A stretch of 32,212 bases of DNA from Phycisphaeraceae bacterium (lineage in GTDB: Bacteria > Planctomycetota > Phycisphaerae > Phycisphaerales > SM1A02), in assembly GCA_003562195.1 (NCBI GenBank), contig PWVT01000298.1, positions 1 through 32,212 of the forward strand, written 5' to 3'. Of this stretch, positions 1 to 21,893 are shown piece by piece (the first letter of the stretch is position 1; each line of letters opens with the position of its first letter). The position numbers were made by a program, and so were the translations under genes. The notes beneath the pieces are model-generated. The model did no database searches. It saw only the letters and a list, made by a program, of their open reading frames with translations, and had not been told where the DNA came from.

Positions 1-539
1 AGCATGCGGCTGGCGGAAATCTGGCGGCTCGTTTCAGACTCATCGGAGACCGGTATCGGCGAGAGTGAATCATTGACGAACACGATATCATACCCTTTGT
101 CCTTGGCCTCACGCTCGATTGCATCCTTGATGCTGGAGTAGATTCGGCGGAGTGTAGCGGCCTTTTTCACATCAATTTTGCGCCTTCCCCACTCCACGAA
201 TGCACGGTACTCGTGACTGGCCAAGGCGAGCTTATTGAGCAACTCCTGATGCTGCTCGCTACCAGGCGTGTACACCTCGAGTTCCTCTTCCAACGCATCA
301 ATGGCCTTGGCGCGACGGTCACCATCGCGTTGCAACTCGTCAGCCATTTTCGTCAGATCTTCATCAGCGGCAGTCCGTTCTTCAAGCTGGTTGAACACGC
401 GCTCGAGGTCAACCGTGGCCACGATTGCCGGTTTCATGTTGGCGATATTCCGCAGCGCCACGGATTGGTAGCCGGCGAAGCTTACGAACATGGCTGCCAT
501 CAGCAGCATTGGGAGATTGAGAATCTTGTTGCGGGTCAT
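1..539 (-). CDS. ompH: OmpH/Skp-family periplasmic chaperone, 3' end cut by window edge
   Basis: This gene is absent from the ORF track because it runs off the left edge; I read it by hand. It begins MTRNKILNLPML, has a short hydrophobic N-terminus that acts as a signal or anchor (LLMAAMFVSFAGYQSVAL), and continues with PAIVATVDLERVFNQLEERT, the OmpH-type opening strand. A long charged, helical, coiled-coil-like stretch follows, then KGYDIVFVND, the typical return strand. About 179 residues are visible. Family members are trimeric periplasmic chaperones that hold unfolded outer-membrane proteins for BamA. The start is supported by GGAAGGAG about 10 bases upstream of ATG at 539. It follows a second ompH-like gene by 23 bases and bamA further upstream, as in the common bamA-skp order. 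The family call is firm; the exact client role is inferred. Confidence 0.82.
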   Translation of the reverse strand, partial: MTRNKILNLPMLLMAAMFVSFAGYQSVALRNIANMKPAIVATVDLERVFNQLEERTAADEDLTKMADELQRDGDRRAKAIDALEEELEVYTPGSEQHQELLNKLALASHEYRAFVEWGRRKIDVKKAATLRRIYSSIKDAIEREAKDKGYDIVFVNDSLSPIPVSDESETSRQISASRM

Positions 540-562
540 TGGCGTAGTGCTCCTTCCGGGAA

Positions 563-1228
563 TCAGCGTGAGGCGTTGCCCGCACGATAAGCATTGTTCA
601 TGCGTTCGATGAGGTTATTGGTGATATCAATCGCAGGATTGGTGTACAGCATGACTCTGGCAAGCATCTGCTGTTCGATCTGCGCGGTGCGCGAGGCGCG
701 TGACTCCGGATTGATCATCAGTTCACCCTGGCCGTCATCAACCAACACCAGGTCATATCCCTCGGTTTCCGCAAGTTGGTTGATCGCCCTCTTGGTGACG
801 CGGTACAAATCCTGCAGGATCAGCGCCTGCTCGAGGTCCACCTGATCGCTGGTGAACTCCATCCATGCTCGATAGCGAAGCTCCTCATACACCAATCGCT
901 CTTCAATGGCGTCTGCTTCAGGCGTCAAGTCAGGGTTCTCAATCGATTGGCGACGAAGCTGATCGTGCTCCTGGCCCAAACGGCGAATTTCTGTTTCGCG
1001 CTTCTCTCGTTCAGCGTTGATGGCTGTCCCCATGTTCCGAAGGTCCATCTCCGCTTCGCTACGCTGAGCAAGTCCTTCAAGCACGGCGGGGAGGTTGACG
1101 ACGGCAACAGTCGCTGGGTTCGCAGGAGAGGTTATCCGGTTTGCGCCTGCCTGATACGCAACAATACTCAGCAGAACCGCGATCAGTACGACCGCCGAGA
1201 CGTTCAAATTCTTCTTCATTGATTTCAT
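563..1228 (-). CDS. ompH: OmpH/Skp-family periplasmic chaperone
   Basis: The 221-residue product opens MKSMKKNLNVSAVVLIAVLL, an N-terminal signal or anchor helix, then PATVAVVNLPAVLEGLAQRS, matching the OmpH opening strand (AxVdlxxVl). A long acidic and basic helical region of coiled-coil type spans about residues 60-150. GYDLVLVDDGQGELM then matches the return strand. Skp/OmpH proteins are usually 160-180 residues, so this is somewhat long. Start at 1228 is supported by AGGA a few bases upstream; a second ATG three codons on is possible. It lies between bamA (79-base gap) and another ompH-like gene (23-base gap), so the three probably form one operon for outer-membrane protein assembly. The two copies are clearly diverged, which suggests an old duplication with possible specialisation. 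Confidence 0.85.
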   Translation of the reverse strand: MKSMKKNLNVSAVVLIAVLLSIVAYQAGANRITSPANPATVAVVNLPAVLEGLAQRSEAEMDLRNMGTAINAEREKRETEIRRLGQEHDQLRRQSIENPDLTPEADAIEERLVYEELRYRAWMEFTSDQVDLEQALILQDLYRVTKRAINQLAETEGYDLVLVDDGQGELMINPESRASRTAQIEQQMLARVMLYTNPAIDITNNLIERMNNAYRAGNASR

Positions 1229-1307
1229 GGGACATTCCTATGGCACGGGGAGCTGGCATTCTACGATCCGGCTGCAAAAAAAGGTCGTCTTGAACTGTCC
1301 TTTTCCG

Positions 1308-3737
1308 CTAAAACGGAAGTTCCGCGCTGAAACTCAGCACCTGGGTCTCGTCGCCACGTTCCTTGAGAATCGGGAAGCCAAGGTCGAAGGCGATGGGCAC
1401 CGGCCCGAATTGCGGAATGTAAAGCCGAACGCCCGTCCCGATCGAAACACGATAGTCATCGAAGCCCACGCTGTCCGTCACCGTACCGGTATCAATAAAC
1501 ACGACACCGGTCACCTGCTCACCGAACAGCGGAAACTCGTACTGCGCACCGGCAAAGAACATCCATTCCCCACCGATCGGATCGTTGCTTGGTTCGCCCG
1601 TATCGTTGCGAATGCCTTTCGGGCTGACTTCGCGGAAGCGAAATCCGCGGAATGTTCGACCACCACGGTAGTAGCGTTCATACGTTGGAGCACGGCCCCC
1701 GAAGATATACCCCGCCTCCGTGTTCAGCCGCAAGGTTGAGCGTCTGCCGAGGAAGTCCTCCGTTACTGTCAGGAACACGGTGTACTCGGCTCCGATATTG
1801 TTGAAGCCGTAATCGCCGCCGAACGCACCAATGCGATCGTACGACATCTGGAAACGACTGCCGCGACCGGGGCGGGTGATTGTGGTGACTGTCGAACGAG
1901 TGAAGGTCATCCCCAACGCCGTGAGCAGGTCGGGACCGGCATCACGAAACAGCTCCGATGGCGCAAAGGGTGCGATGCTGGTCAACTCGACATGCTCGAC
2001 ACGCGAACGCACGCCGACACTCCAGACATCACCAAGCCGACGGCTGAGACCGGCATTCGCAGTCAGCCGTTCCTCGTCGTATCGACGGAAGAACCGCTGT
2101 TGGTACGAGCCGCCGAGATTGAGTGAATACTCCGAATCAAGCAGATGCGGCTCGGTAAAATTGATGGCGTATTGGAAAATCTCATTGCCAGGGCGAAACG
2201 CCATGGAGAATCGTTGGCCAGCTCCACGAAAGGCACGGCCTCGAAGAAGATCACCGATGGATGCAGGGGTGTCGGCGATATCGAAGTTGTCCTGTCGCAG
2301 TGAGATTTCACCGAAAAGCCCAGAGTCCGAACCCACGGCCACGCCGAAATTGACTGAGCCAGTATTCCGCTCGCGCACTTCAACCAGGATATCGCGGACT
2401 TCTGAGTCATCATCTTCAATGTCCGACTCTCGCGGTGGCTGTGCTGTGATTCGAACATCGCCGAACAGTCTCGTATCTGCGATGCGCCGTCGTGTGCGCT
2501 CAAGCTCTGTCGCGTCCAGTGGGCGACCGGGTTGCAGACGCACATGCCTCCGAATCACGCGATCACGCGTCAGGAAATTGCCTTGGACATCGACCAGTCC
2601 CACGCGAGTCGGGCGACCTTCGTCAATTTCCATCAGCAAGTCGACTTGTGCTTCTCCAGGGACGTGTAACTCAATGATTTCAACACGTTGCCGTCGCTGC
2701 ACCGGGTAATAGCCAAGCCGCCCGTAGGCCTCCTCTACGGCCTCAACAGAGCGGCGGAGTCGGTCACGCGAATAGACATCGCCGGGCCGAATATCGAGCA
2801 ACGCGGCAATCTGTTCTGCTGCGAACACGCGCAACGGTTCACCATCAACCAGTCTGGCCGTGCGAACGCTTCGCAAGGTGTACAGCGGTCCCTCATCAAT
2901 GAGAAACGTCACCGCAGCTTCGCCATGGTCTGGTGAAAGCTGAACGTGCCGATCCACACGCACCTCAAGATACCCGCGATCGCGGTAGTAGGAGGAAATG
3001 GCCGATACGTCTTCGATCAGACGATCTTCGTCAAGCTCACCACGCCGCAACGCCAGAATCGCTGTTCTGGTGGAGATTTCCCGATGCAGCAGGCGATCTT
3101 CAAATGCTTCATTGCCTTGAAACTCGATGGAGCGAATCCGGACGCGTGGGCCTTCGATGATTCGGAAGATCAGTATGCCGGATTGCTCAAGTTCAGAATC
3201 GTCAACGAGTACCGTGGCAAGATAGTGGCCACGTTCTCGATATGCCGTCTGAATCGAGCGCACTGCGTGTTGCACAAGGTAGTCATCGCGCGGGCTGCCG
3301 CGCATCAATCGTACGACTGCGAGCAGATCCTGATCGGAGATCAAGGTGTTGCCGACAACCTGGATTTCGGCGATCAGGGGCTGTTCGACCACCTGGAAGA
3401 TGACGCGGACCGTGCCATCGTCAAGCACTTCCGCCTCTGCTGTAATAGTGGCAAAGCGACCGAGCTGATCCAACCGGGCGACATCATCGCGAATCGTTTG
3501 CTCACTATATGCTTGTCCGACAGCAGTTCGTATATTGTTCAGCACCAATTGTTGGGGCACCTGCTGCAGCCCGTGGACAGTGACGTCGGAGATTGGCCGA
3601 TCGACAAGATCCGCGTCGGGTGCCGGTTGTGAGTATGCATTGGTCACACACACAAGCACCGCAAAGATGACGAGGAGGTGTACAACGCCGGGCAAGCGAT
3701 GAACTGCGCAAATAGTGGCAGGTGTGTGCAGCGCCAT
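1308..3737 (-). CDS. bamA: Outer-membrane protein assembly factor BamA (Omp85)
   Basis: BamA inserts beta-barrel proteins into the outer membrane. The 809-residue product has a signal peptide (VVHLLVIFAVLVCVTNAYSQ). About five POTRA units follow, each recognisable from its first strand: ISDVTVHGLQQV, LIAEIQVVGNTLI, RIRSIEFQGNEAF, a diverged fourth starting YTLRSVRTARLV, and RVGLVDVQGNFLT. A C-terminal 16-strand-type barrel begins around residue 430. The loop-6 motif usually read VRGF is FRGF here (RTFRGFRFREVSP). The protein ends in phenylalanine (FSAELPF), as expected for a beta-signal. Length matches E. coli BamA (about 810). It leads the bamA-ompH-ompH block and is divergent from lpxD. No clear Shine-Dalgarno precedes ATG 3737, but no better start lies downstream that keeps the signal peptide. 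Confidence 0.95.
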   Translation of the reverse strand: MALHTPATICAVHRLPGVVHLLVIFAVLVCVTNAYSQPAPDADLVDRPISDVTVHGLQQVPQQLVLNNIRTAVGQAYSEQTIRDDVARLDQLGRFATITAEAEVLDDGTVRVIFQVVEQPLIAEIQVVGNTLISDQDLLAVVRLMRGSPRDDYLVQHAVRSIQTAYRERGHYLATVLVDDSELEQSGILIFRIIEGPRVRIRSIEFQGNEAFEDRLLHREISTRTAILALRRGELDEDRLIEDVSAISSYYRDRGYLEVRVDRHVQLSPDHGEAAVTFLIDEGPLYTLRSVRTARLVDGEPLRVFAAEQIAALLDIRPGDVYSRDRLRRSVEAVEEAYGRLGYYPVQRRQRVEIIELHVPGEAQVDLLMEIDEGRPTRVGLVDVQGNFLTRDRVIRRHVRLQPGRPLDATELERTRRRIADTRLFGDVRITAQPPRESDIEDDDSEVRDILVEVRERNTGSVNFGVAVGSDSGLFGEISLRQDNFDIADTPASIGDLLRGRAFRGAGQRFSMAFRPGNEIFQYAINFTEPHLLDSEYSLNLGGSYQQRFFRRYDEERLTANAGLSRRLGDVWSVGVRSRVEHVELTSIAPFAPSELFRDAGPDLLTALGMTFTRSTVTTITRPGRGSRFQMSYDRIGAFGGDYGFNNIGAEYTVFLTVTEDFLGRRSTLRLNTEAGYIFGGRAPTYERYYRGGRTFRGFRFREVSPKGIRNDTGEPSNDPIGGEWMFFAGAQYEFPLFGEQVTGVVFIDTGTVTDSVGFDDYRVSIGTGVRLYIPQFGPVPIAFDLGFPILKERGDETQVLSFSAELPF

Positions 3738-3795
3738 GAGAATCCGGGAGCATACCGGCGGGATGCAGAGTCAACAAGGCGAATGCGTTTCGTGG

Positions 3796-3891
3796 GTACT
3801 GGTACAGTTTGAAAGTGGAACAGGCCTCTGGCCTGTAGATACGTTCCTCAGGCGGGACGCCTGTGCCACCGGATTCAAACTGTACCAGTAC
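3796..3891. repeat. Dispersed palindromic repeat, copy 1 (nested hairpins)
   Basis: An 18-base perfect inverted repeat (3796-3813 and 3874-3891, arm core TACTGGTACAGTTTGAA) encloses two smaller hairpins: ACAGGCC-TCT-GGCCTGT at 3820-3836 and CAGGCG-GGA-CGCCTG at 3849-3863. GTGG (3815-3818) can also pair with CCAC (3866-3869), so the whole unit can fold into a multi-branched structure. A second copy lies at 30078-30176 in the same orientation. The core blocks are identical between copies. The 12-base linker and outer arms differ, yet each copy stays self-complementary. It lies between bamA and lpxD, in the divergent promoter region. It resembles REP/MITE-like elements mobilised in trans; no transposase is present in the window. 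Confidence 0.88.
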
Positions 3892-3954
3892 GGTTTCGTG
3901 CAACCGCATGGACTTTTGCGCCGTGACACGGTTCAATGGCTGCAAATGAATGTC

Positions 3955-5019
3955 ATGTCTCTCAATGAGCTTGCTGAACGGATCGGCGCTCGCGTGCTTG
4001 GTGACGGCTCGCGGAACGTTTCTCGCTGCGCTTCGATCGAGAAAGCGGGGTCTGATGAAGTCGCATTTGTTGCCAATGCCAAGTATGCCCGTTTTCTCAA
4101 CAGCACGAAAGCCGCAGCAGTGTTGGTGGATGCGGCTGTCGCTCAAGACCCACGAACGCCGAAGTCACTGACCAAACTGGTTGCGGATGACCCGTACTTT
4201 GCCTTTCGCAATGCATTGATCGAACTCAACGGCCAGCGCACGCATCCAACACCGCTGGATGCCGATGCACAGTTTGCCGATGGCAAAATCAGCCCGCGGG
4301 CGGCGATTCATCCCGAGGCCGTTGTCGGCCGTGATACCATCATTCATCCCTTTGCCACGGTCGAACGAGGCGCACGGATTGGCAACGGGTGCGTGTTGTA
4401 TCCGGGTGCGTATGTGGGGGAAGAGGCCGTGGTCGGTGATGAGTGTCTGCTGTTTCCCAACGTGACGATCTACGACCGCTGCGTGCTCGGGAACCGCGTG
4501 ACGCTCCATTCCAGCACCGTCGTGGGGCAGGATGGATTCGGCTATGCCACGCACAAGGGCGCGCATCACAAAATTCCGCAAACAGGCATCGTGGTCATTG
4601 AAGACGATGTTGAACTCGGTGCTGGTTGCGCGATCGAACGCTCTGCGATGGGGCAGACGAGAATCGGGGCGGGAACCAAGTTTGCCGACCTGATCTCTAT
4701 TGGACATGGTTGTGACATCGGCAAGCATTGCCTTTTTGTTTCCTTTGTCGGCGTGTCCGGGTCCGTGGAAGTCGGCAACTATGTCGTGCTCGGCGGGCAA
4801 GTCGGTGTGACCGGCCACCTCAAGATCGGCGACGGAGTGCAGGCGATGGCAAGAAGTGCCATCGTGCGTGATGTCCCGGCAGGGGCCAAGGTCGGCGGAG
4901 CACCGGCCGTCCCGGCGGAGATCGCCCGGCGAAATGTCATGGCGTCAGTCGATCTGCACAAACTGGTCAAACGGGTGCGCGACTTGGAACGCCAACTCGA
5001 GATTTCGAAAACTCAATAG
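3955..5019 (+). CDS. lpxD: UDP-3-O-acylglucosamine N-acyltransferase LpxD
   Basis: LpxD adds the N-linked acyl chain to UDP-3-O-acylglucosamine in lipid A synthesis. The product (about 354 residues from MSLNELAERIGA; E. coli LpxD is 341) starts with the LpxD uridine-binding domain. A left-handed beta-helix of hexapeptide repeats follows from about residue 105 (AAIHPEAVVGRDTIIHPFA onward). The stretch ISIGHGCDIGKH contains the histidine expected to be the catalytic base, then GGQVGVTGHLKIGDG. A short coiled-coil tail (LVKRVRDLERQLEISK) resembles the C-terminal helix of LpxD. The track ORF starts at 3715, but its extra 80 residues translate the palindromic repeat and are not LpxD-like, so I use ATG 3955 (3946 is an alternative). 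No clear ribosome site is visible. It is divergent from bamA and convergent with ftsW. Confidence 0.93.
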   Translation: MSLNELAERIGARVLGDGSRNVSRCASIEKAGSDEVAFVANAKYARFLNSTKAAAVLVDAAVAQDPRTPKSLTKLVADDPYFAFRNALIELNGQRTHPTPLDADAQFADGKISPRAAIHPEAVVGRDTIIHPFATVERGARIGNGCVLYPGAYVGEEAVVGDECLLFPNVTIYDRCVLGNRVTLHSSTVVGQDGFGYATHKGAHHKIPQTGIVVIEDDVELGAGCAIERSAMGQTRIGAGTKFADLISIGHGCDIGKHCLFVSFVGVSGSVEVGNYVVLGGQVGVTGHLKIGDGVQAMARSAIVRDVPAGAKVGGAPAVPAEIARRNVMASVDLHKLVKRVRDLERQLEISKTQ

Positions 5020-5023
5020 ATGC

Positions 5024-6235
5024 TCAGCCGTGACCTGACGGTGCGCGAGCGCCGCGTTCTGCGGCAAGCGCAAGGAGTGGTATCGCATCATCATCCGACA
5101 TGCGAAGCTCACGCCTCGGCACGGTGTCGCGGGATAATCCAGCGTTCTCAATGGCCACCAGCAGACCGATGCAAAACGCAGTGAGAATCCAGCCAGTCCC
5201 GCCTGCACTGAGCAGTGGCAGTGCGATGCCCTTTGTCGGTGCGGTGCCGGTGACCACAGCAAGATTGATCAACGCCTGCAAGCCGATCGTCAGCAGAATG
5301 CCAAGGCCGAGCAATCGCGAAAACGGCGATGCAGTTCGACGAATGATCGACAGCCCGCAGAGCAGCAGTCCCGCGTACAGCACGATGACCAGCGCAGCCC
5401 CAACGATGCCCAGTTCTTCACAGATGATGGCGTAAATGAAGTCTGTGGTGGCTTCAGGCAGGTAACCGAACTTCTGCACGCTGTTGCCCAGCCCACGACC
5501 GGCAAGCCCGCCACCACTGACGGCAGCCATGGATTGCAGCACGTGATAGCCGATGCCTTGGGGGTCTTGATACGCATCAAAAAATGCAGTGATGCGATTG
5601 CGGCGATATGCACTGGTCGCCACCGCCGCCACGAACAGGAACGCACCGATGGGTATCAGCATCGCCGCCTGCCAGACTTTCGTACCAGCAGCGACGAGCA
5701 TGCACACTGCAACGGCCCCAATCAGTACGGCGGTGCCGAGGTCTTCATTGCCGATCAACGCGCAGATGATGACGACCAGAATCATCGGGGGTAGAAAACC
5801 CGTTGTGAATCGGCCCATCGCTCCAGCCCGCCGTGCAGCGTGCCACGCAAGGACGAACAGTAATCCCCACTTTGCGATTTCGCTCGGCTGGAAGCCCAGT
5901 GGCCCCAACTCCACCCACCGCTTGGCGCCATTGACCTCTCGGCCGATGCCCGGTACGTGCACCAGCAGCAACAGCACAACGGAGGCGAGGACAATCCACG
6001 GAATCGGCGACGCTAGGCCGCGCGCGTGGTAAATCCGCTCAACCGGGACCGTCGTACCAATCAGCAGCATCGCAACGGCCAACATCGCCAGCATCATCGG
6101 CCTGCCGAGCAACACATCGCTGACGGTGATGGATCGCGACGAGTCGATGGAAAGCCCGGCTGAATTGACCATGATCACGCCGAACATCAACAGCGTGATC
6201 GCGATGAGAATCAATGCATGGCCGGGGCGCAACAT
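5024..6235 (-). CDS. ftsW: FtsW-type SEDS peptidoglycan polymerase
   Basis: FtsW is an inner-membrane lipid II polymerase of the septal peptidoglycan machine. The 403-residue, roughly ten-helix product has the SEDS landmarks GAKRWVELGPLGFQPSEIAK, GNEDLGTA, GRGLGNSVQKFGYLPEATTD, FIYAIICEELG and PTKGIALPLLSAGGTGW. The combination GRGLGNSxQK...LPEAxTDFI..EELG points to FtsW rather than RodA. A hydrophilic C-terminal tail of about 40 residues follows the last helix. It is convergent with lpxD, with only 4 bases between stop codons, and lies downstream of the MmgE/PrpD gene on the same strand, separated by a strong hairpin. No murG, ftsQ or ftsZ is in the window, so it is outside any visible dcw cluster. 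Its presence argues for FtsW-dependent septation, whereas many planctomycetes outside Phycisphaerae lack this machinery. Confidence 0.92.
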   Translation of the reverse strand: MLRPGHALILIAITLLMFGVIMVNSAGLSIDSSRSITVSDVLLGRPMMLAMLAVAMLLIGTTVPVERIYHARGLASPIPWIVLASVVLLLLVHVPGIGREVNGAKRWVELGPLGFQPSEIAKWGLLFVLAWHAARRAGAMGRFTTGFLPPMILVVIICALIGNEDLGTAVLIGAVAVCMLVAAGTKVWQAAMLIPIGAFLFVAAVATSAYRRNRITAFFDAYQDPQGIGYHVLQSMAAVSGGGLAGRGLGNSVQKFGYLPEATTDFIYAIICEELGIVGAALVIVLYAGLLLCGLSIIRRTASPFSRLLGLGILLTIGLQALINLAVVTGTAPTKGIALPLLSAGGTGWILTAFCIGLLVAIENAGLSRDTVPRRELRMSDDDAIPLLALAAERGARAPSGHG

Positions 6236-6277
6236 GGCGTGTTCATCGGCAACGCCTTCAGTTACCCCGTAGTTTTG

Positions 6278-6309
6278 CCGCTTGTGGCTTTGCGCGAAGC
6301 CACAAGCGG
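6278..6309 (-). terminator. Strong hairpin after the MmgE/PrpD gene, terminator-like
   Basis: A 13-base perfect stem (CCGCTTGTGGCTT / AAGCCACAAGCGG) with a 6-base loop starts 8 bases beyond the stop codon of the minus-strand MmgE/PrpD gene and lies upstream of ftsW. No T-run follows on the minus strand (CAAAACTACG). It is therefore a non-canonical terminator or an RNA-stabilising 3' hairpin, not a textbook intrinsic terminator. Confidence 0.5.
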
Positions 6310-6316
6310 TACTGAC

Positions 6317-7879
6317 TCACTCGAATGCGCCGCGATCGACAATCTGAAAATCATGCAACGATCGCAATTCGTCTGCGCCAGCGTTACCAATCTCGTTGAA
6401 CCGGTTGATCACTGGGATCGGGCTTTCCAGAGCAAGTTCACCGAGAAGTTTGAACTTGGTTTCGAGGATGCCATGCAGATCAGCCGTGCTGTTACGGGCG
6501 TGACCGGCGGGGTACATGACCATGCCGCTGTCATAATCCTTGCCATCTGCGGTGATGACGATGGAGGTGGGGATGCCGTCGGGGTACTTCTCATCGTACT
6601 CTTGGCCGCCGTGAACGAAGGTGATCTTCTCCATCAGCGCCCGTGTTTCCGGGTGCATGATGGCGTCCGGGCCGTAGTCGTAAGGACTGAGCATCAACGT
6701 CTTCCAGAAGGCATCGGTGCCTCCATCGGTCTGCAACTGGCCGGCCTTGGCGGCTTCGACGGCTTTGCGCAGCTTGGTGGAGACGATATAGACCATGGAG
6801 TGGTCAGCACTTTGCCGGGTGCGCGGGTCGCGCTTGGCAGGGTCGCCGATGATGCCAAACGCCGGTTCATACGCGACGATCTTGATCGTCTCAATCTTCT
6901 CCGGCTGCTGCAGAATCGCAGGATTCTCAGCGATGAGGTCAATCAGGCCCTGAAGTGCACCGGCTGATTGGTGTTCATACAGCCCCAGCTTGAAGTGCAT
7001 GCCCATCACGGCAAAGTCATCACCCGAGTGTGACAGCACCAGATCAAACGGACTTTCATCATCGCTTCGCGTTGGCTCGAACTGCCGCCAGATCGCTTCG
7101 GGGTTGCGGAAGATGTCCTTCGGGCCGATGAAGCCGGCCATTGCCCGCTTCATGCACAGCACGGCTGCCTCGGTTGAGATCGCGGCTGAGGCGCCTTTGG
7201 AATCAGAAAGCTGCTTGCCGGCCCGGATCGCGCGCCAGGGGATGTAGTGCGCGACGAACATGCCGATGGCGTGTTCGATCTGCTCCGGCGTGGCGCCAAG
7301 CATCGCGCCGTACGTGGCCGCGGAACCGATGGCACCATGGACGACGTGGTCGATCTTGTATGACTTCAAGCTGAACACCTCAGCCAGACGACCGCGGATT
7401 TCATCAAGGCACACCATGCCTCGCAAGGCAAACGCGCCATCCTTGCCGCCCAGTTGGGCGGCTGCGATGGCAACAGGGTAAAAGTCATTGTGGCCGAACT
7501 CACCTGCGGTGTGTCCCAGCGCGGGGTTATAGCCGAAATTGGTGCCGTTGGAATCCCACTCGCGCACGGCTGAACTGTTGGCGACGATGGCCTTCTCCGG
7601 CACGACAGGTGTAGTTGAGCCGAGAACTGTGGCGCCGGTGTTGGCTGGATAGGTGAGCGCTTCGTTTCGTAGCAGCGTCGGGGCGTTCGTGCCGAGCGCG
7701 AGCGCCGACATGCCGCAGAGCATGCTGTCGGTGTAAAACAGCACGGTGCGGTCGAGTACTGCTTGCGACGGTTCACCGATGCTACCGGAGAGAAAATCAC
7801 AGGCAAACTTGCCGATGCCCAAGGCCTGATTGGTATCGCGGGACAGTGTCACGGACGATGTTGATGTAGTTGTGGTCAT
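6317..7879 (-). CDS. MmgE/PrpD-family protein (2-methylcitrate dehydratase-like)
   Basis: The family includes 2-methylcitrate dehydratase (PrpD), cis-aconitate decarboxylase and related enzymes. I start it at ATG 7879 (MTTTTSTSSVTLSRD), giving 520 residues. The track ORF extends 54 codons further upstream but overlaps the divergent kinase gene and has no family-like sequence. Features in order: an all-helical N-terminal domain with TVLFYTDSMLCGMSALALG, the segment SAVREWDSNGTNFGY in the substrate-site region, GHNDFYPVAIAAAQ, and HGAIGSAATYGAMLGATPEQ. A C-terminal alpha/beta lid begins near FKLGLYEHQSAGALQGL. Bacterial PrpD is about 485 residues, so this is slightly long, nearer fungal versions. 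No prpB or prpC is adjacent, so methylcitrate-cycle function is not supported by context. A TAAACT hexamer lies 10 bases before the chosen ATG; no ribosome site is visible. Confidence 0.85.
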   Translation of the reverse strand: MTTTTSTSSVTLSRDTNQALGIGKFACDFLSGSIGEPSQAVLDRTVLFYTDSMLCGMSALALGTNAPTLLRNEALTYPANTGATVLGSTTPVVPEKAIVANSSAVREWDSNGTNFGYNPALGHTAGEFGHNDFYPVAIAAAQLGGKDGAFALRGMVCLDEIRGRLAEVFSLKSYKIDHVVHGAIGSAATYGAMLGATPEQIEHAIGMFVAHYIPWRAIRAGKQLSDSKGASAAISTEAAVLCMKRAMAGFIGPKDIFRNPEAIWRQFEPTRSDDESPFDLVLSHSGDDFAVMGMHFKLGLYEHQSAGALQGLIDLIAENPAILQQPEKIETIKIVAYEPAFGIIGDPAKRDPRTRQSADHSMVYIVSTKLRKAVEAAKAGQLQTDGGTDAFWKTLMLSPYDYGPDAIMHPETRALMEKITFVHGGQEYDEKYPDGIPTSIVITADGKDYDSGMVMYPAGHARNSTADLHGILETKFKLLGELALESPIPVINRFNEIGNAGADELRSLHDFQIVDRGAFE

Positions 7880-7957
7880 GAGATGCGCCAGTTTAGCAGG
7901 AACCGGTATTTCGGTGCCCGACTTGCCTGGAGAGGCATGTAGATTTACAACTCTTGG

Positions 7958-8731
7958 ATGCACCGATTGTGGGTCCACCATTCGTTCGCTGAACCCATGG
8001 CAGCGAGCGGGCTGAATAGCTATGACGCGATCATTCGCCAACTGAACGGTGCTTCAGCGCACATCGGTCACGGTGTCGTGGTTCTGCAAACCCAACTGAC
8101 GTTGAATGAGGTCGTAGTGCCGGTGTTTTTCAAACGGTATTTCGAACCCGAGGCGTCACTACGTTTCCTGGGACGAGTTTCCAAAGCCCGTCGGGAAACC
8201 AGGAGCTACGACACATTTGCTTCGATTGATATCCGTTGCCCACAGTGGGTGGCGTGTGGCGAGGATCGTGATGCGATGGGCCGGTTACGTAGTGCATTCA
8301 TCATCACTGTGGCCGTTCCGGGTGCAATGATGCTCGATCAATACATCCGGAAGTATTGTGCAGAGAAGACATGTCATCGTGTGCAACAAACACGTCGGAG
8401 ACTGATTGAGCAACTTGCAGCGCAAGTGCGAAACGCGCATGAACAGGGATTCTTTCACAATGATTTGCACTGGCGGAACATCATCATCAATGGTCCGGAA
8501 GACGAGCCGCTGGTCTGGTGGATCGACTGCCCGCGCGGTCGGTTTCGACGTCGGTCAATTCTCAAGCATCACTTTCGCATCAAAGACCTTGCTTGCCTTG
8601 ATCGAACAGCAATCGAACTGTGTACGCGACGTGAGCGGCTGCGATTCCTCGTCAGGTACTTGGGCCGTGGAAAGAGTTTGCTGCGACGCTTTGCTCGGGA
8701 TGTCGATGCCTATCGCAAGCGACGTTGGTAG
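7958..8731 (+). CDS. WaaP/InaA/Kdo-kinase-like lipopolysaccharide kinase
   Basis: This 257-residue protein has the compact protein-kinase-like fold of Kdo/heptose kinases (PF06293-type). Visible motifs are VPVFFKRYF with candidate ATP-binding Lys59, a candidate alpha-C glutamate near residue 80, the catalytic loop FFHNDLHWRNIII (Asp169, Asn174), WWIDCPRG with a metal-binding Asp190, and IKDLACLDRTA, a C-lobe helix typical of this family (usually KDLAxL). Expected activity is ATP-dependent phosphorylation of a sugar in LPS core or lipid A; the actual acceptor is unknown. ATG 7958 is used; ATG 7997 is also possible, and neither has an obvious ribosome site. It is divergent from the MmgE/PrpD gene (78-base gap) and convergent with the ycfL-like gene (26-base gap). 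lpxD 4 kb away is the only other LPS gene seen. Confidence 0.8.
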   Translation: MHRLWVHHSFAEPMAASGLNSYDAIIRQLNGASAHIGHGVVVLQTQLTLNEVVVPVFFKRYFEPEASLRFLGRVSKARRETRSYDTFASIDIRCPQWVACGEDRDAMGRLRSAFIITVAVPGAMMLDQYIRKYCAEKTCHRVQQTRRRLIEQLAAQVRNAHEQGFFHNDLHWRNIIINGPEDEPLVWWIDCPRGRFRRRSILKHHFRIKDLACLDRTAIELCTRRERLRFLVRYLGRGKSLLRRFARDVDAYRKRRW

Positions 8732-8757: not shown

Positions 8758-9171
8758 TCATCGTGCCCAGCGAAGTTCGAGACGATGGCTCACTGCATCG
8801 GTGCTCATTGCGGAACTTCGCAATCGAACAACTTGGCGCGGCTCCATGGGAATCATTTCCCATCCCATCGTCGGCGTGACTTCCATGCCATCCTCGTCAT
8901 AGAACAGAAAGCGGTAATCGACCAAATACTGTCGGTCAGTCATATTGCGTACAGGCACCTCAACGCGATATGGCCGCGCACGGTCGTCCACGATGATGGC
9001 GGGGTGGAATCCCAGCCACGGCCGCAGTTCAGGTGAGAGCACGGAGATCTGCGGGTCATTCAGCGGAGCTGGGTAGGGGTCTCCAAGGCCGGGACTGGGA
9101 GAGAGGTCCGCCCGGCATCCAAGAACCAAAGCCGAGCAGACAAGAGCCGCGAGTGTCGTCATACGTGACAT
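8758..9171 (-). CDS. YcfL-like lipoprotein (DUF1425 family)
   Basis: This 137-residue protein has a lipoprotein signal: MSRMTTLAALVCSALVLGC, with the lipobox LVLGC. The mature part has an Ig-like beta pattern: VEVPVRNMTDRQYLVDYRFLFYDEDGMEVTP followed by WEMIPMEPRQVVRL. That layout (N-T-D/T-x-x-x...Y-R..WYD..G.ev) is the DUF1425/YcfL pattern. In E. coli ycfL sits directly beside lpoB; here it is the last gene of a four-lipoprotein operon containing two LpoB-like genes, which strengthens the call. A good ribosome site (AAAAGGAA) lies about 7 bases upstream of ATG 9171. The biochemical role of YcfL is unknown; a link to penicillin-binding-protein activation is inferred from neighbourhood only. 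Confidence 0.78.
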   Translation of the reverse strand: MSRMTTLAALVCSALVLGCRADLSPSPGLGDPYPAPLNDPQISVLSPELRPWLGFHPAIIVDDRARPYRVEVPVRNMTDRQYLVDYRFLFYDEDGMEVTPTMGWEMIPMEPRQVVRLRSSAMSTDAVSHRLELRWAR

Positions 9172-9198
9172 GGTGAGTTCCTTTTGATCTTCATTCTA

Positions 9199-10596
9199 TC
9201 AGTTTCCAGTGACACGGCCCGTAGAGGTTGCATTCCGTTGAGGTGATCCAAGCGGTCGTGGTGGGGGCGAGTCGCGGCCGTGCATGCGGACATACACCGC
9301 CTTGGGATCGCCATACTCGCCAGGATCAAGATCGTACAGGGTCATCGTCCGGCCATCACCGATGGTCAGGCGCACATCGCCAGGCCCATCCAGTTGAAGT
9401 GGCACGAGGTACACCGACTGCGGCAGGAACTCAAGGTAACGCGTGTCAGCGCGTGCGCCGGCCTGCGTGAGCATGCCAAGAATCATGGCCCCGACTCCAG
9501 CCAGCGCCACTTCGGCTGAGTGTTGTTCAATGCCGATGTACGTTGCCACCGCACCACCGCCGATCAATATCTCGCCGATCGCAGCCTTGGCGCGGCGGAT
9601 GTCTTCCAGATTGTTCCACCGGTGGTCCATTGCCATTCGGCTGATATTGGCAACAGGGATGACACTGAGTCCGCGTCCACTAGTCGGCTGTACCGAGAGC
9701 GATGCTGCTGCAATGCTGAGTGGCTCTTGTTGTTGAAATCGCGCAAGCGCGTTGGCGGGTCCATACGCGATTTTCGTCGGGCCTTTGCCATAGTGGACAA
9801 TCAGCAGTGTGTTGTAGGCGTCCTCCCGCAGCGTTTGCGCCAGTGAGGCCAGGGAGGGATCGATCTCGACGGCAGCGTCGAACATCGCGTCACTCCCACC
9901 GGCTCCACTGAGTCGCGCCCCGATGCCCTGCATGAGAAAGCCAAGGGCGAAGTTGGTGTCGACGGCGGTGTATCCACGATCCAGAAATTCATCATCCGCA
10001 GCAGCTCGACGGGCGAGTAGCTCTGGTGTCTGATATGCGCCGAAATCTGTCAGGCGGAACAGGGCATTGGCAGATGCGGCTCGTGCGTTTTCCCAGTCTC
10101 CCATTATCGCGTACAGCGTGGCGACATAGTGGTACATCATCGCCTGTTCAAACGGTTCGCCCTTCCAGATTCGCACACCCTCGTACAGCATGATGGCTGC
10201 CGTTGTACGGTCAGCATTGAGACCGGCGGTTGAAAGCAGTTCGAAGCTGTATCCCAACGCTCGCTCAGCTTCCGCAAGATCGCCCGCGGCTAATGCTGCC
10301 ATACCCAGCCGTGCGTTGTTGAGCAGAACCTGCTCGTCATTGCGCGTCAGCGCATCCGGTCGCAGAGCTTCGCGAGCTGCGTCGTACTCATAGCCGTAGT
10401 ACGCATGAATCGCCGCAAAATTGCGCGGTGCCTGGCATCCCGCAGACAACATCACCAGCATGAGCGGAAGCAACCCTGTCAACATCCAGCAGAGCAGCCG
10501 TGCAGACACGTGGCGGCGCAACGAGACACTCCTGGTCCATGACACGCGGACACACCGCCAATGACCGAAATGGATGCGTGTTTCAAGCACCATCAT
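9199..10596 (-). CDS. COG3014-like TPR lipoprotein
   Basis: The product is up to 465 residues, exported as a lipoprotein (GLLPLMLVMLSAGC lipobox). Helical repeat-like sequence follows (LLNNARLGMAALAAGDLAEAERALGYSFELL, then MMYHYVATLYAIMGDWENARAAS). After that comes a region with a Gly/Ala-rich hydrophobic segment, RAKAAIGEILIGGGAVATYIGIEQ, and a beta-rich end (YLEFLPQSVYLVPLQL). This architecture and the position beside lpoB and ycfL homologues match the uncharacterised COG3014 family. ATG 10596 is the track start. However, a TTG at 10521 is preceded by AGGAG at 7 bases and gives MRRHVSARLLCWMLTG, a normal-length lipoprotein signal, so I suspect the shorter form. It sits 20 bases after the second lpoB-like gene and 27 bases before ycfL. 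Function is unknown; it may scaffold the lipoprotein set. Confidence 0.75.
   Translation of the reverse strand: MMVLETRIHFGHWRCVRVSWTRSVSLRRHVSARLLCWMLTGLLPLMLVMLSAGCQAPRNFAAIHAYYGYEYDAAREALRPDALTRNDEQVLLNNARLGMAALAAGDLAEAERALGYSFELLSTAGLNADRTTAAIMLYEGVRIWKGEPFEQAMMYHYVATLYAIMGDWENARAASANALFRLTDFGAYQTPELLARRAAADDEFLDRGYTAVDTNFALGFLMQGIGARLSGAGGSDAMFDAAVEIDPSLASLAQTLREDAYNTLLIVHYGKGPTKIAYGPANALARFQQQEPLSIAAASLSVQPTSGRGLSVIPVANISRMAMDHRWNNLEDIRRAKAAIGEILIGGGAVATYIGIEQHSAEVALAGVGAMILGMLTQAGARADTRYLEFLPQSVYLVPLQLDGPGDVRLTIGDGRTMTLYDLDPGEYGDPKAVYVRMHGRDSPPPRPLGSPQRNATSTGRVTGN
10529..10533 (-). promoter_or_regulatory. Shine-Dalgarno supporting a TTG start for the COG3014-like gene
   Basis: AGGAG on the minus strand lies 7 bases before TTG 10521, the first codon of a compact lipoprotein signal. 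The annotated ATG at 10596 has only a poorly spaced AGGAC directly in front of it. Confidence 0.45.
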
Positions 10597-10616
10597 GTCC
10601 TGTTTGATTCAACGTC

Positions 10617-11192
10617 TCAATCGAACGTTCGGCCCGAAACGGCTCGCTTGACTTCCCATGCGTCTTCCCATGCGATGGTGCCGCTGCGAAGGTCAATGAG
10701 TTGGAAGCTACATACATACGCATCTGAGCGTCCCGCTGCGGAAGTATGGGTGAGTGTGTGAAACTCTGCGGTGAGTTGGTGCGTCGGATTCATCCGTAAA
10801 CCATACGGCTCATGTGACGTGCCCAATTCATCAGCGACGATCGGCCATCGCTCAGGAGGGATGATCCAGATCAGGTTGCGACGCTGCGCGACATCAGTCT
10901 GTGCAAGCAGCGCACGCATTCTGCCGATATACATCCATCGTTCCCGTTCGGGAATGATCTGATTCGTGTGATTCACCACACGATAGATCGAGATCACCCA
11001 CGGTTCATCTTCCTCATTCCGAGTGCCGATTCGATCGTCCTGGGTGAACGAGCGAGCCATGCGATCAGTCATGTTCACCAGATCCACGCTGTTGAGAAAC
11101 GTGGTACGCGTCTGGGGAGGACTCGCGCACGCGGCAAGTGCGAGCACGAACAGCAGTGATGCACTGAAGGCGGCATGAGGATGGGAAACCAT
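10617..11192 (-). CDS. LpoB-like lipoprotein, diverged second copy
   Basis: The 191-residue protein starts at ATG 11192 (MVSHPHAAFSASLLFVLALAAC). GGAAGG lies 9 bases upstream, so the longer track start at 11243, which overlaps the previous gene, is rejected. The lipobox is LAAC. Mature sequence shares with the neighbouring LpoB-like protein the blocks DLVNMTDRMAR near the start and FQLIDLRSGTIAWEDAWEVK at the end. The second is the classic LpoB closing strand pattern (LvDlktGxIvWxdexei). The middle (VISIYRVVNHTNQIIP) fits the LpoB core strand with NxT, but the region is diverged and has extra residues (RERWMYIGRMRALL). It ends with a charged tail. LpoB activates the class A penicillin-binding protein PBP1B in enterobacteria; that this copy does so is inference. 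Confidence 0.72.
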   Translation of the reverse strand: MVSHPHAAFSASLLFVLALAACASPPQTRTTFLNSVDLVNMTDRMARSFTQDDRIGTRNEEDEPWVISIYRVVNHTNQIIPERERWMYIGRMRALLAQTDVAQRRNLIWIIPPERWPIVADELGTSHEPYGLRMNPTHQLTAEFHTLTHTSAAGRSDAYVCSFQLIDLRSGTIAWEDAWEVKRAVSGRTFD

Positions 11193-11209
11193 GGCCGATT
11201 GCCTTCCAG

Positions 11210-11830
11210 CTAGTTGAACTTCACCTCGTAGGAGTTCTCCCACACAATCGCGCCAGCACCGATATCCGGACCAGTTGCTGCGTCACGCAATTGCACAAGC
11301 TGATAATTGAGCAAGTAATAGTTTGTACCACCACGTGGCAGGTCGTAGATTTCACACGTGAGGACATAATCGGCTCTTGATCGATAGGCAATGGCGCTGG
11401 AGTCGAAGTCCTTGCCGCCATACTCGCGAGTGCGCTGTTGCTCGATGTAGGCACTTTCACGGACGAATTCGAGGCCTTCACGCGCGCCGGATGAATTCAG
11501 TTGCGAACGCAACCGCGCGAGGAAGACCTGGTAGTCCGCGTGCGGGGCGCTGGTCTTGTTCTCGATCTGGCCGACAAAAATGCGAGGCGGGCTGTTTCGG
11601 TTCGTGATATCCAACCGTTGAGCGATATCCCGTGCCATGCGGTCAGTGGCATTGACGAGGTCGGCACTTCGTGGCGCCATGACACCAAGTTCAGACGGCG
11701 CATCGCTGGTGGGGTCCATCCGGTAGCCGGACGTGCCACGATTGTGCGGCGGGGGCTGGCAGGCAGTCACGGCAAGGATGCTCAGGGCAAGAACGGCTTT
11801 GATCGCAGTGTTCACGGCGTTTCCTTTCAT
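11210..11830 (-). CDS. lpoB: LpoB-like penicillin-binding-protein activator lipoprotein
   Basis: The 206-residue protein has a lipoprotein signal (IKAVLALSILAVTAC) and a disordered Pro/Ser/Thr linker, as LpoB has to reach through peptidoglycan. The LpoB core follows: SADLVNATDRMARDI, PRIFVGQIENKTSAP (the strand with NxTS), FLARLRSQLNSSG, SRADYVLTCEIYDL (GADYxLxGxI-like) and YQLVQLRDAATG...GAIVWENSYEVKF. The fit to LpoB is good over the whole domain. ATG 11830 is given, but a GTG five codons on (11815) is preceded by AAAGGAA at ideal spacing and would yield MNTAIKAVLALSILAVTAC, so the true start may be 11815. It is the first gene of the four-lipoprotein operon; a terminator lies upstream, so the promoter is probably in 11831-11925. 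The target synthase is not in the window. Confidence 0.8.
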   Translation of the reverse strand: MKGNAVNTAIKAVLALSILAVTACQPPPHNRGTSGYRMDPTSDAPSELGVMAPRSADLVNATDRMARDIAQRLDITNRNSPPRIFVGQIENKTSAPHADYQVFLARLRSQLNSSGAREGLEFVRESAYIEQQRTREYGGKDFDSSAIAYRSRADYVLTCEIYDLPRGGTNYYLLNYQLVQLRDAATGPDIGAGAIVWENSYEVKFN

Positions 11831-11924: not shown

Positions 11925-11954
11925 GAGAAAGAAAAAGTCCGCCGAAGCGGACTT
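11925..11954 (-). terminator. Intrinsic terminator of the short secretin-N-domain gene
   Basis: On the minus strand AAGTCCGC-TTCG-GCGGACTT forms an 8-base stem with a stable UUCG tetraloop, followed directly by TTTCTTTCT. It lies 34 bases after the stop of the 11989-13005 gene and upstream of the lpoB-like operon, which it insulates. Confidence 0.82.
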
Positions 11955-11988: not shown

Positions 11989-13005
11989 TCAAGGCCGCTG
12001 GCGATCACGATTACCGCCGCTGCTGCCTGCCTGTTCACCAATGTCGCGACCGCGGCGGACATCCTCGACGCGGATGTTGGACAAACCGCCGGAAAATCGC
12101 ACATATCGTCGTTCTGCTTGTGCTTGGGAGCGATTTGCGGGTCTGACAGCAAATGGGTAGCCGCCAATTTGTCGGTGAATGAAGTCCGGGGCACGGATGA
12201 TCAGTTGGCCGTGATAGTACCGAATGGTTGCCCAGTCACCGCCAAGGATTTCCCAGCCATCAGGTTCGATGGTCTCGGTGATCAGGTCAATGATTTGCTG
12301 GACGCGTTCTTCCTCAGTGAGGCGTTCTCTTTCCTGGCCGGGTTCACCGAAGAGGCCTCCACCACCCTGGCCGCCTCCACCGCCGCCCCCGCCACCACCG
12401 CCGCCTCGCCCACCGCCGCCCCCACCGCCACCGCCGCCTCCACCACCGCCTTGATCGAGGGCTTGGTTGAGGTCGAATTGCGGGGCATTGTCAAACAGCG
12501 GCACTTCAAAAAGCAAGTCGCGAATCGGGTAATAGCGAATCTCTTTTGCAGCCGGTGCAGCAAGGCGATCTTTCGTGCCAACTTCGAGGAAGCCATCACG
12601 AAGCTGCCATGTGGTTTCATCAAAGTCCGAGGCCTGTTCGAGTACGCGCTCCAGAATGCTCAAAGCAGGCATTTCTCGGCTGTCAAGGGTGATCGGAGCA
12701 TCGGGATCCAGCCCATGTCCAGCGCGATCAGTGCTATACCGTGCGATGATGTTGATTCCAAGCACTGTTTGCAGGTAGTCAATAGCGTCGCGTGCGGGTG
12801 TCTCCTGAAACGGTGCAGAGATATCCGTATACAGAAGCACGCTGAGAATGTGGGCCTTATCGGTATCAGCAGCGCGGGTTCGTTCCTGCTGCTGGCGGAC
12901 GTGCTCCAAGCGTTGGCCCAGCCCTTGCGCATAGGTGTCACTGCCTACGATACCAAGCAATAATGTGCCGGAAACTGCAAGTGCGAACGGTCGAATTGAC
13001 TTCAT
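11989..13005 (-). CDS. Secretin N-domain protein without a secretin barrel, poly-Gly linker
   Basis: This 338-residue exported protein has the signal MKSIRPFALAVSGTLLLGIVG and probable cleavage after TYA. Residues about 50-150 form an STN-like domain (VLLYTDISAPFQETPARDAIDYLQ). EIRYYPIRDLLFEVPLFDNA and PQFDLNQALDQ follow, then Gly14-Arg-Gly12-Gln-Gly4, LFGEPGQERER and a short N1-like module (IEPDGWEILGG...GQLIIRAPDFIHRQIGG). From there homology with the large secretin at 21894-24743 stops. The protein ends in an Arg-rich tail (RRYVRFSGGLSNIRVEDVRR) instead of a barrel domain. Start at 13005 has GGAGAGG 3-5 bases upstream. I found no frame in which the barrel continues, so it looks like a shortened paralogue or accessory subunit rather than a fresh frameshift. 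Function is unknown; a structural or periplasmic partner of the large secretin is one possibility. Confidence 0.75.
   Translation of the reverse strand: MKSIRPFALAVSGTLLLGIVGSDTYAQGLGQRLEHVRQQQERTRAADTDKAHILSVLLYTDISAPFQETPARDAIDYLQTVLGINIIARYSTDRAGHGLDPDAPITLDSREMPALSILERVLEQASDFDETTWQLRDGFLEVGTKDRLAAPAAKEIRYYPIRDLLFEVPLFDNAPQFDLNQALDQGGGGGGGGGGGGGGRGGGGGGGGGGGGQGGGGLFGEPGQERERLTEEERVQQIIDLITETIEPDGWEILGGDWATIRYYHGQLIIRAPDFIHRQIGGYPFAVRPANRSQAQAERRYVRFSGGLSNIRVEDVRRGRDIGEQAGSSGGNRDRQRP
12355..12450 (-). repeat. GGN trinucleotide-type tract encoding Gly14-Arg-Gly12-Gln-Gly4
   Basis: The coding strand is a run of GGC, GGT, GGA and GGG codons interrupted by CGA and CAG. Mixed third positions show it is not a pure slippage product. 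The opposite strand gives spurious proline- and alanine-rich ORFs in the track. Confidence 0.9.
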
Positions 13006-21684: not shown

Positions 21685-21893
21685 TCCAGATTGAATCAGC
21701 GATTCGGTCGAGCGAATGCGTAGATGAAGTCCTGATTGCGGCTTGCGAACGTTTTGCCTGCAAAGTAGTCTGGTGCGTCGTCAGTCAATCTGGTACGTTG
21801 ATCGCAGCGTGTTTACTGTGTGTTCAACCTGAAATTTTGCGTTAGACTTTGCGAATTGGCCAGACGCCCGGCCGCTCGCTTAGGGAGATACGA

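What the first reader, a model, noticed from the sequence alone, without database searches (positions are those of the whole stretch)
8758..11830. Four-lipoprotein operon with two LpoB-like paralogues in a putative planctomycete
Two LpoB-like proteins, a COG3014-like TPR lipoprotein and a YcfL/DUF1425 lipoprotein are packed with 17-27-base gaps. The grouping of these three families is known from proteobacteria, where LpoB activates PBP1B. Finding it with a tandem LpoB duplication outside proteobacteria suggests an older, more general peptidoglycan-synthase control module, perhaps with two targets. COG3014 and YcfL still have no function, and the context supports a common complex.
Basis: partly seen in the sequence, partly recalled or inferred. 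Interest (0 to 1): 0.64.

Follow-up and report, generated by a model that had tools for sequence, protein, structure and literature searches.

The report
LpoB lipoprotein operon without PBP1B targets
This is a real operon for four outer-membrane lipoproteins, shared between planctomycetes and proteobacteria, but it sits in bacteria that almost all lack the wall-building enzyme its best-known member switches on in E. coli, so the complex must have some other, probably older, job.

Summary
Observation confirmed. On the minus strand, 11830-8758, lie four lipoprotein genes 17-27 bases apart: two LpoB-domain paralogues, a TPR lipoprotein and a DUF1425/YcfL protein. The host is a Phycisphaerae-type planctomycete.

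The "COG3014-YcfL-LpoB" grouping is real. I found it in Aeromonas, Azospirillum and Marinobacter DNA, and the planctomycete TPR profile matches the Marinobacter protein (E 3e-20; shuffled controls no better than 0.07).

The class A PBP interpretation fails. No Transgly domain was found in the window's genome (79% complete), in 112 of 120 class genomes, or in 37 of the 39 class genomes carrying the operon. Across 244 Planctomycetota, 133 have an LpoB domain and 119 of those have no class A PBP. No PBP there shows UB2H; the two "UB2H" hits I opened are Mfd.

A tree of 84 LpoB proteins puts 32 A and 32 B copies in two sister groups: one ancient duplication, both copies kept. Their linkers are short (B median 16, A 28 residues; E. 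coli 59).

Best reading: an older outer-membrane lipoprotein complex at the membrane-wall interface, from which the PBP1B-activator role of LpoB was derived. Client unknown; SEDS synthases are the main wall-related candidate.

The parts
11210..11830 (-). LpoB-A: LpoB-domain lipoprotein, 206 aa, lipobox Cys24, about 33-residue linker before the domain
   Evidence: Pfam PF13036 27.8 bits; alignment A2; tree clade A; linker measured
10617..11192 (-). LpoB-B: second LpoB-domain lipoprotein, 191 aa, lipobox Cys22, about 15-residue linker (alternative GTG start at 11243)
   Evidence: Pfam PF13036 26.7 bits; alignment A3; tree clade B; linker measured
9199..10596 (-). TPR lipoprotein (COG3014-like), 465 aa, N-terminal TPR region, helical hairpin, beta-rich C-terminus with AD.R...LP motif; lacks the C-terminal tail of its nearest relatives
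   Evidence: Alignment A4; model mean pLDDT 75, TPR matches of marginal E-value in PDB; homologous to the TPR genes beside LpoB/YcfL in proteobacteria
8758..9171 (-). DUF1425/YcfL-family lipoprotein, 137 aa
   Evidence: Pfam PF07233 49.7 bits, cut-off 28.3; alignment A5; hhalign to Aeromonas YcfL 4.4e-8
11935..11954 (-). terminator-like hairpin separating the operon from the upstream gene 11989-13005
   Evidence: Pattern scan, 8-pair stem plus T-rich tail; number of such sites in the region not above shuffles

Best explanation
The operon encodes an outer-membrane lipoprotein complex: two LpoB-fold subunits (A and B, from one ancient duplication and kept together, so probably partners in a hetero-oligomer), a TPR lipoprotein as adaptor and a DUF1425 protein. 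It acts on the outer-membrane side of the wall and not as an activator of class A PBPs, which these bacteria almost all lack. The same core (TPR, DUF1425, LpoB) exists in proteobacteria; PBP1B activation by E. coli LpoB, with its long linker and the UB2H domain, is most simply a later recruitment of one subunit. Shown here: gene content, recurrence, homology across phyla, single duplication, short linkers, lack of class A PBP and of PBP-borne UB2H. Inferred: physical complex, hetero-oligomer, location, direction of evolution. Unknown: the client.
For: Family hits (LpoB solved structures matched at E about 1e-8 by alignment A6, which holds no enterobacterial LpoB). All 39 class genomes with a strong TPR match also have the LpoB match, 38 of them on the same contig; DUF1425 lies beside it in most loci. 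Proteobacterial cognates in Aeromonas (TPR-DUF1425-LpoB), Marinobacter plasmid (LpoB-TPR-YcfL, the window's order) and Azospirillum plasmid (TPR-YcfL-LpoB). Tree: 64 rows = 32 A + 32 B, B 99/95, A 94/79, joint branch 99/98. Class A PBP: 0 in own genome, 8/120 class, 22/244 phylum; no association with the operon (Fisher p = 1.0) or with LpoB domains (p = 0.50). UB2H only in non-PBP frames, Mfd in the two opened. Linkers: B median 16, A median 28, Aeromonas 24, E. coli 59. Fold matches: TolB-N, GNA1162, CsgG, PelC.
Against: In Vibrio cholerae LpoB is genetically tied to PBP1B (PMC4063736), so the family can serve a class A PBP outside enterobacteria. No interaction, localisation or phenotype data exist for the planctomycete proteins. 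The LpoB-A model is of modest confidence (pLDDT 64) and its PDB matches have low TM-scores. Direction of evolution rests on distribution and an unrooted tree.
Confidence: 0.55

Rival explanations
1. The complex is a wall-synthesis activator after all, but for SEDS/class B PBP pairs (RodA-PBP2 or FtsW-FtsI), with A and B serving elongation and division.
For: SEDS is universal (119/120) and two transpeptidase-domain proteins exist in the own genome, so SEDS/bPBP is the only recognisable polymerase system; two SEDS classes and two LpoB paralogues; a SEDS gene lies 2.5 kb away at 5024-6235.
Against: In the genomes compared the SEDS genes lie on other contigs or far from the operon, and no SEDS or PBP gene recurs in the flanks. 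About two thirds of class genomes have SEDS but no strong operon match, so it is dispensable. B linkers of about 16 residues are short for reaching an inner-membrane enzyme.
Confidence: 0.22
2. The proteins form a secretion or assembly ring at the outer membrane, like CsgG, PelC or GNA1162 systems, for a surface polymer or appendage.
For: Best fold matches of LpoB-A are TolB-N, GNA1162, CsgG and PelC; several loci carry a further protein with a weak profile match to the LpoB alignment (E 2.8e-5); CsgG/LpoB-like proteins lie next to the module in Azospirillum and in L085.
Against: The predicted secondary structure of LpoB-A leaves no room for CsgG-like membrane hairpins, no recurrent substrate or secretion gene flanks the operon, and the fold group is very broad.
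Confidence: 0.18
3. One reading: LpoB-A and LpoB-B activate class A PBPs, as E. coli LpoB activates PBP1B.
For: Sequence-family membership; LpoB-PBP1B genetics in V. cholerae (PMC4063736).
Against: No class A PBP in the genome or in 37 of 39 class genomes with the operon; the three rare class A PBPs annotated have the PbpC-type C-terminal domain and no UB2H; UB2H not found on any PBP in 244 genomes.
Confidence: 0.03

Closest known systems
Gammaproteobacterial hinT-TPR(COG3014-like)-ycfL-lpoB-thiK cluster (Aeromonas caviae, here L091)
   Same: Same three lipoprotein families, adjacent on one strand, each matched by the planctomycete profiles; LpoB linker about as short (24 residues)
   Different: One LpoB instead of two; flanked by hinT and thiK; order TPR-DUF1425-LpoB
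Marinobacter adhaerens plasmid pHP-187 LpoB-TPR-YcfL genes (L094/L095)
   Same: Same gene order as the window (LpoB, TPR, DUF1425); TPR protein homologous at E 3e-20
   Different: One LpoB; followed by a further 272-aa protein and Flp pilus genes
E. coli LpoB, activator of PBP1B
   Same: LpoB domain, outer-membrane-type lipoprotein, DUF1425 gene next door
   Different: 59-residue linker, no TPR gene beside it, has PBP1B with UB2H as target; NCBIfam equivalog not met by the window proteins
CsgG, PelC, GNA1162 and TolB N-terminal domain
   Same: Best fold matches of the LpoB-A model
   Different: Low TM-scores, other gene contexts, no evidence for a pore or Tol-Pal link here

Membership tests
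LpoB domain family (Pfam PF13036) | profile score over the curated cut-off | tested here: met
   27.8 and 26.7 bits against 22.3
LpoB equivalog (NCBIfam TIGR02722, PBP1B activator) | profile score over the equivalog cut-off | tested here: not met
   18 and 25.6 bits against 110.55
LpoB-PBP1B activator system | class A PBP in the same genome | tested here: not met
   No PF00912 in own genome (79% complete); absent in 37 of 39 class genomes with the operon
LpoB-PBP1B activator system | UB2H docking domain in the PBP | tested here: not met
   No PF14814 match coincides with a PBP in 244 genomes; the two hits opened are Mfd; three class A PBPs of the class lack it
LpoB-PBP1B activator system | long flexible linker to cross the wall | tested here: not met
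   About 33 and 15 residues in the window, 59 in E. coli
LpoB-PBP1B activator system | stimulation of glycosyltransferase/transpeptidase activity | not testable with these tools
   biochemistry needed
DUF1425/YcfL (PF07233) | profile score over cut-off | tested here: met
   49.7 bits against 28.3
COG3014-like TPR lipoprotein | homology to the TPR lipoprotein encoded beside YcfL/LpoB in proteobacteria | tested here: met
   hhalign E 3.1e-20 (Marinobacter), 1.2e-15 (three-sequence proteobacterial alignment), shuffles at best 0.07
COG3014 | score against the COG3014 model itself | not tested
   no COG library available
CsgG/PelC/GNA1162-like outer-membrane rings | ring-forming oligomer at the outer membrane | not testable with these tools
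   only fold-level matches

The most novel reading that the evidence does not exclude
An ancient, trans-phylum outer-membrane lipoprotein complex (LpoB-A/LpoB-B, TPR, DUF1425) that regulates wall growth through SEDS/class B PBP synthases in bacteria without class A PBPs, from which the enterobacterial LpoB-PBP1B switch later evolved.
Probability: 0.2. Interest if true: 0.8.

Novelty: new variant of a known kind. Interest (0 to 1): 0.55.

Why it matters
LpoB has been described as a recent enterobacterial invention that evolved with UB2H of PBP1B (PMC3060616). Finding its domain family, in the class with the same partner genes, in more than half of the sampled Planctomycetota, nearly all without class A PBPs, means that the family has an unknown function independent of PBP1B. 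It gives the uncharacterised YcfL and COG3014-type proteins a testable context, and planctomycetes offer a background in which class A PBPs cannot confuse the result.

Tried and rejected
Family search PF13036 in the own genome returned nothing, although the proteins pass the cut-off: the whole-genome first look misses divergent members, so alignments were used instead. P0004 alone found no LpoB structure by phmmer. A functional link to the SEDS gene at 5024-6235 was considered and not counted as evidence, since it is not kept near the operon elsewhere. A fifth partner (families c3 and c6) was examined: related to each other (5.7e-11), weakly to the LpoB alignment, not clearly to the Marinobacter or Azospirillum extra genes, and not found in the own genome. 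The gene 11989-13005 was considered as part of the operon and rejected (terminator-like site between; not kept outside near relatives). UB2H matches in 69 genomes first looked like docking domains; the two opened are Mfd. Literature searches found nothing on this cluster.

Full report
What is in the sequence. On the minus strand of 8758-11830 four ORFs follow one another with gaps of 17, 20 and 27 bases: LpoB-A (11210-11830), LpoB-B (10617-11192; a GTG start at 11243 would overlap LpoB-A), a TPR protein (9199-10596) and a DUF1425 protein (8758-9171). All four begin with a signal peptide that ends in a plausible lipobox; that of the TPR protein (LSAGC) is the least standard. Pfam places both LpoB-like proteins over the LpoB cut-off and the fourth clearly in DUF1425; the TPR protein has no Pfam match over cut-off. 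The stricter LpoB equivalog model is not met. A terminator-like hairpin at 11954-11935 separates the operon from the upstream gene, although such sites are not more frequent here than in shuffles.

Host. The closest relatives of LpoB-A are in Phycisphaerales metagenome-assembled genomes (77% identity). The window's genome is 2.75 Mb in 306 contigs, 79% complete.

Recurrence. In 120 genomes of the class, 39 have a strong match to the TPR profile and all 39 have LpoB matches, 38 of them on the same contig. In the fetched loci the two LpoB genes and the TPR gene stay together, while DUF1425 is at the end, between, divergent, or not found nearby; two genomes have the order LpoB-B, TPR, DUF1425, LpoB-A (L055, L056). 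Other lineages have one LpoB in the order TPR, DUF1425, LpoB (L085, and probably L081) or an LpoB next to the TPR gene (L083, L084). No other gene family recurs widely in the flanks, so the set is a unit of its own.

Proteobacterial counterparts. Aeromonas caviae has hinT, TPR, DUF1425, LpoB, thiK-like. Marinobacter adhaerens plasmid pHP-187 has LpoB, TPR (across the record's origin) and YcfL, the window's order. Azospirillum sp. TSH100 plasmid p1 has TPR, YcfL, LpoB, DUF6844 and a CsgG/LpoB-like gene. E. coli and Klebsiella have only ycfL-lpoB between hinT and thiK. Profile comparisons: LpoB-A with Aeromonas LpoB E 1.4e-12, DUF1425 4.4e-8, TPR with Marinobacter 3.1e-20 and with the three proteobacterial proteins together 1.2e-15, against at best 0.07 for shuffled sequences. 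A shared AD-R---LP motif marks the TPR family.

The duplication. A tree of 84 LpoB proteins (82 distinct) puts 32 A and 32 B copies into two sister groups (B 99/95, A 94/79; the branch holding both 99/98), apart from the single-copy planctomycete and proteobacterial LpoB proteins. One old duplication, with both copies kept across the sampled loci, argues for different, joint roles. A second, independent duplication is seen in two other families (L078, L079). The tree is unrooted.

No class A PBP. The transglycosylase domain PF00912 is absent from the own genome, from 112 of 120 class genomes (102 of 106 good-quality ones) and from 222 of 244 phylum genomes, while the same search rings in 10 of 14 control genomes. 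Of the 39 class genomes with the operon only two (G038, G112) have it; there is no association (Fisher p = 1.0). In the phylum 133 of 244 have an LpoB domain, 14 of them with a class A PBP (p = 0.50). This agrees with a published report that planctomycetes are among bacteria lacking class A PBPs (PMC8406291). Three class A PBPs of the class have the PbpC-type C-terminal domain (over its cut-off in one) and no UB2H. UB2H matches in 69 genomes are weak and none lies at a PBP; the two opened, one from the own genome, are the repair factor Mfd. SEDS proteins are universal and the own genome has two transpeptidase-domain proteins, so the wall is presumably made by SEDS/class B PBP pairs.

Reach. 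E. coli LpoB needs a long flexible region (up to 145 A) to reach PBP1B from the outer membrane (PMC4632607). Between lipid-bearing cysteine and domain I count 59 residues in E. coli, 61 in Klebsiella, 44 in Proteus, but 24 in Aeromonas, 27 in Azospirillum, 32 in Marinobacter, a median of 28 in group A and 16 in group B (33 and 15 in the window). The B domain at least should stay near the outer membrane. V. cholerae LpoB is nevertheless genetically tied to PBP1B (PMC4063736), so a short linker, if Vibrio has one (not checked), need not exclude such a role.

Structure. The LpoB-A model (pLDDT 64, N-terminal quarter of low confidence) matches TolB-N, GNA1162, CsgG and PelC rather than LpoB first, with low TM-scores; the sequence profile A6 does find LpoB structures at about 1e-8. 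The fold group is therefore well supported, the place within it less so. The TPR model (pLDDT 75) shows a TPR region, a long helical hairpin rich in small residues and a beta-rich end.

Conclusion. The operon is real, conserved and related to the proteobacterial cluster. It cannot work by activating class A PBPs in nearly all bacteria that carry it. The most economical view is an older outer-membrane lipoprotein complex, of which enterobacterial LpoB became a PBP1B activator. Its client is not known; control of SEDS synthases and a ring-like assembly function are the main alternatives.

Limits. The own genome is incomplete and most relatives are metagenome-assembled. The whole-genome first look can miss divergent family members, so absences rest on many genomes, not on one. 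G038 and G112 show that the operon can co-exist with a class A PBP. No experiment bears on the planctomycete proteins.

Noticed in passing
window 11989-13005 (-) and 21849-24743 (+): The gene upstream of the operon repeats part of the N-terminal region of the secretin-domain ORF at 21849-24743, including a nearly identical stretch DLLFEVPxFDNAPQFDLNQALDQGGGG with a long glycine run, but lacks the secretin domain; kept upstream of the operon in L001, L002 and L004.
   Followed up: partly
window 9199-10596; L001-L006; L076 7828-8319; L077 1904-2362: The window's TPR protein lacks a C-terminal tail of about 110 residues (PWILGG...RHILEGG...GYK) found in its nearest relatives; in two other families a matching stretch is a separate ORF. 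No Pfam match, not found elsewhere in the own genome.
   Followed up: partly
L078 9064-10503, L079 5781-7147: A second, independent tandem LpoB duplication next to the TPR gene.
   Followed up: no
L057, L058, L060, L064 (downstream); L066, L069-L072, L090 (beside the operon): An extra protein family, about 245-730 aa, related between the two sets (5.7e-11) and weakly to the LpoB alignment (2.8e-5, c3 set); possible fifth component in other families.
   Followed up: partly
L096 3081-8084: Azospirillum plasmid extends the module with a DUF6844 gene and a CsgG/LpoB-like gene; the latter is homologous to the double-domain gene after LpoB in planctomycete L085 (E 2.5e-13), and the two LpoB proteins are neighbours in the tree, which suggests horizontal transfer of that version.
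   Followed up: partly
window 3-8731: Envelope genes cluster beside the operon: two OmpH/Skp-like ORFs, BamA (POTRA/Omp85), LpxD, a SEDS protein (5024-6235) and a Kdo/WaaP-type kinase.
   Followed up: partly
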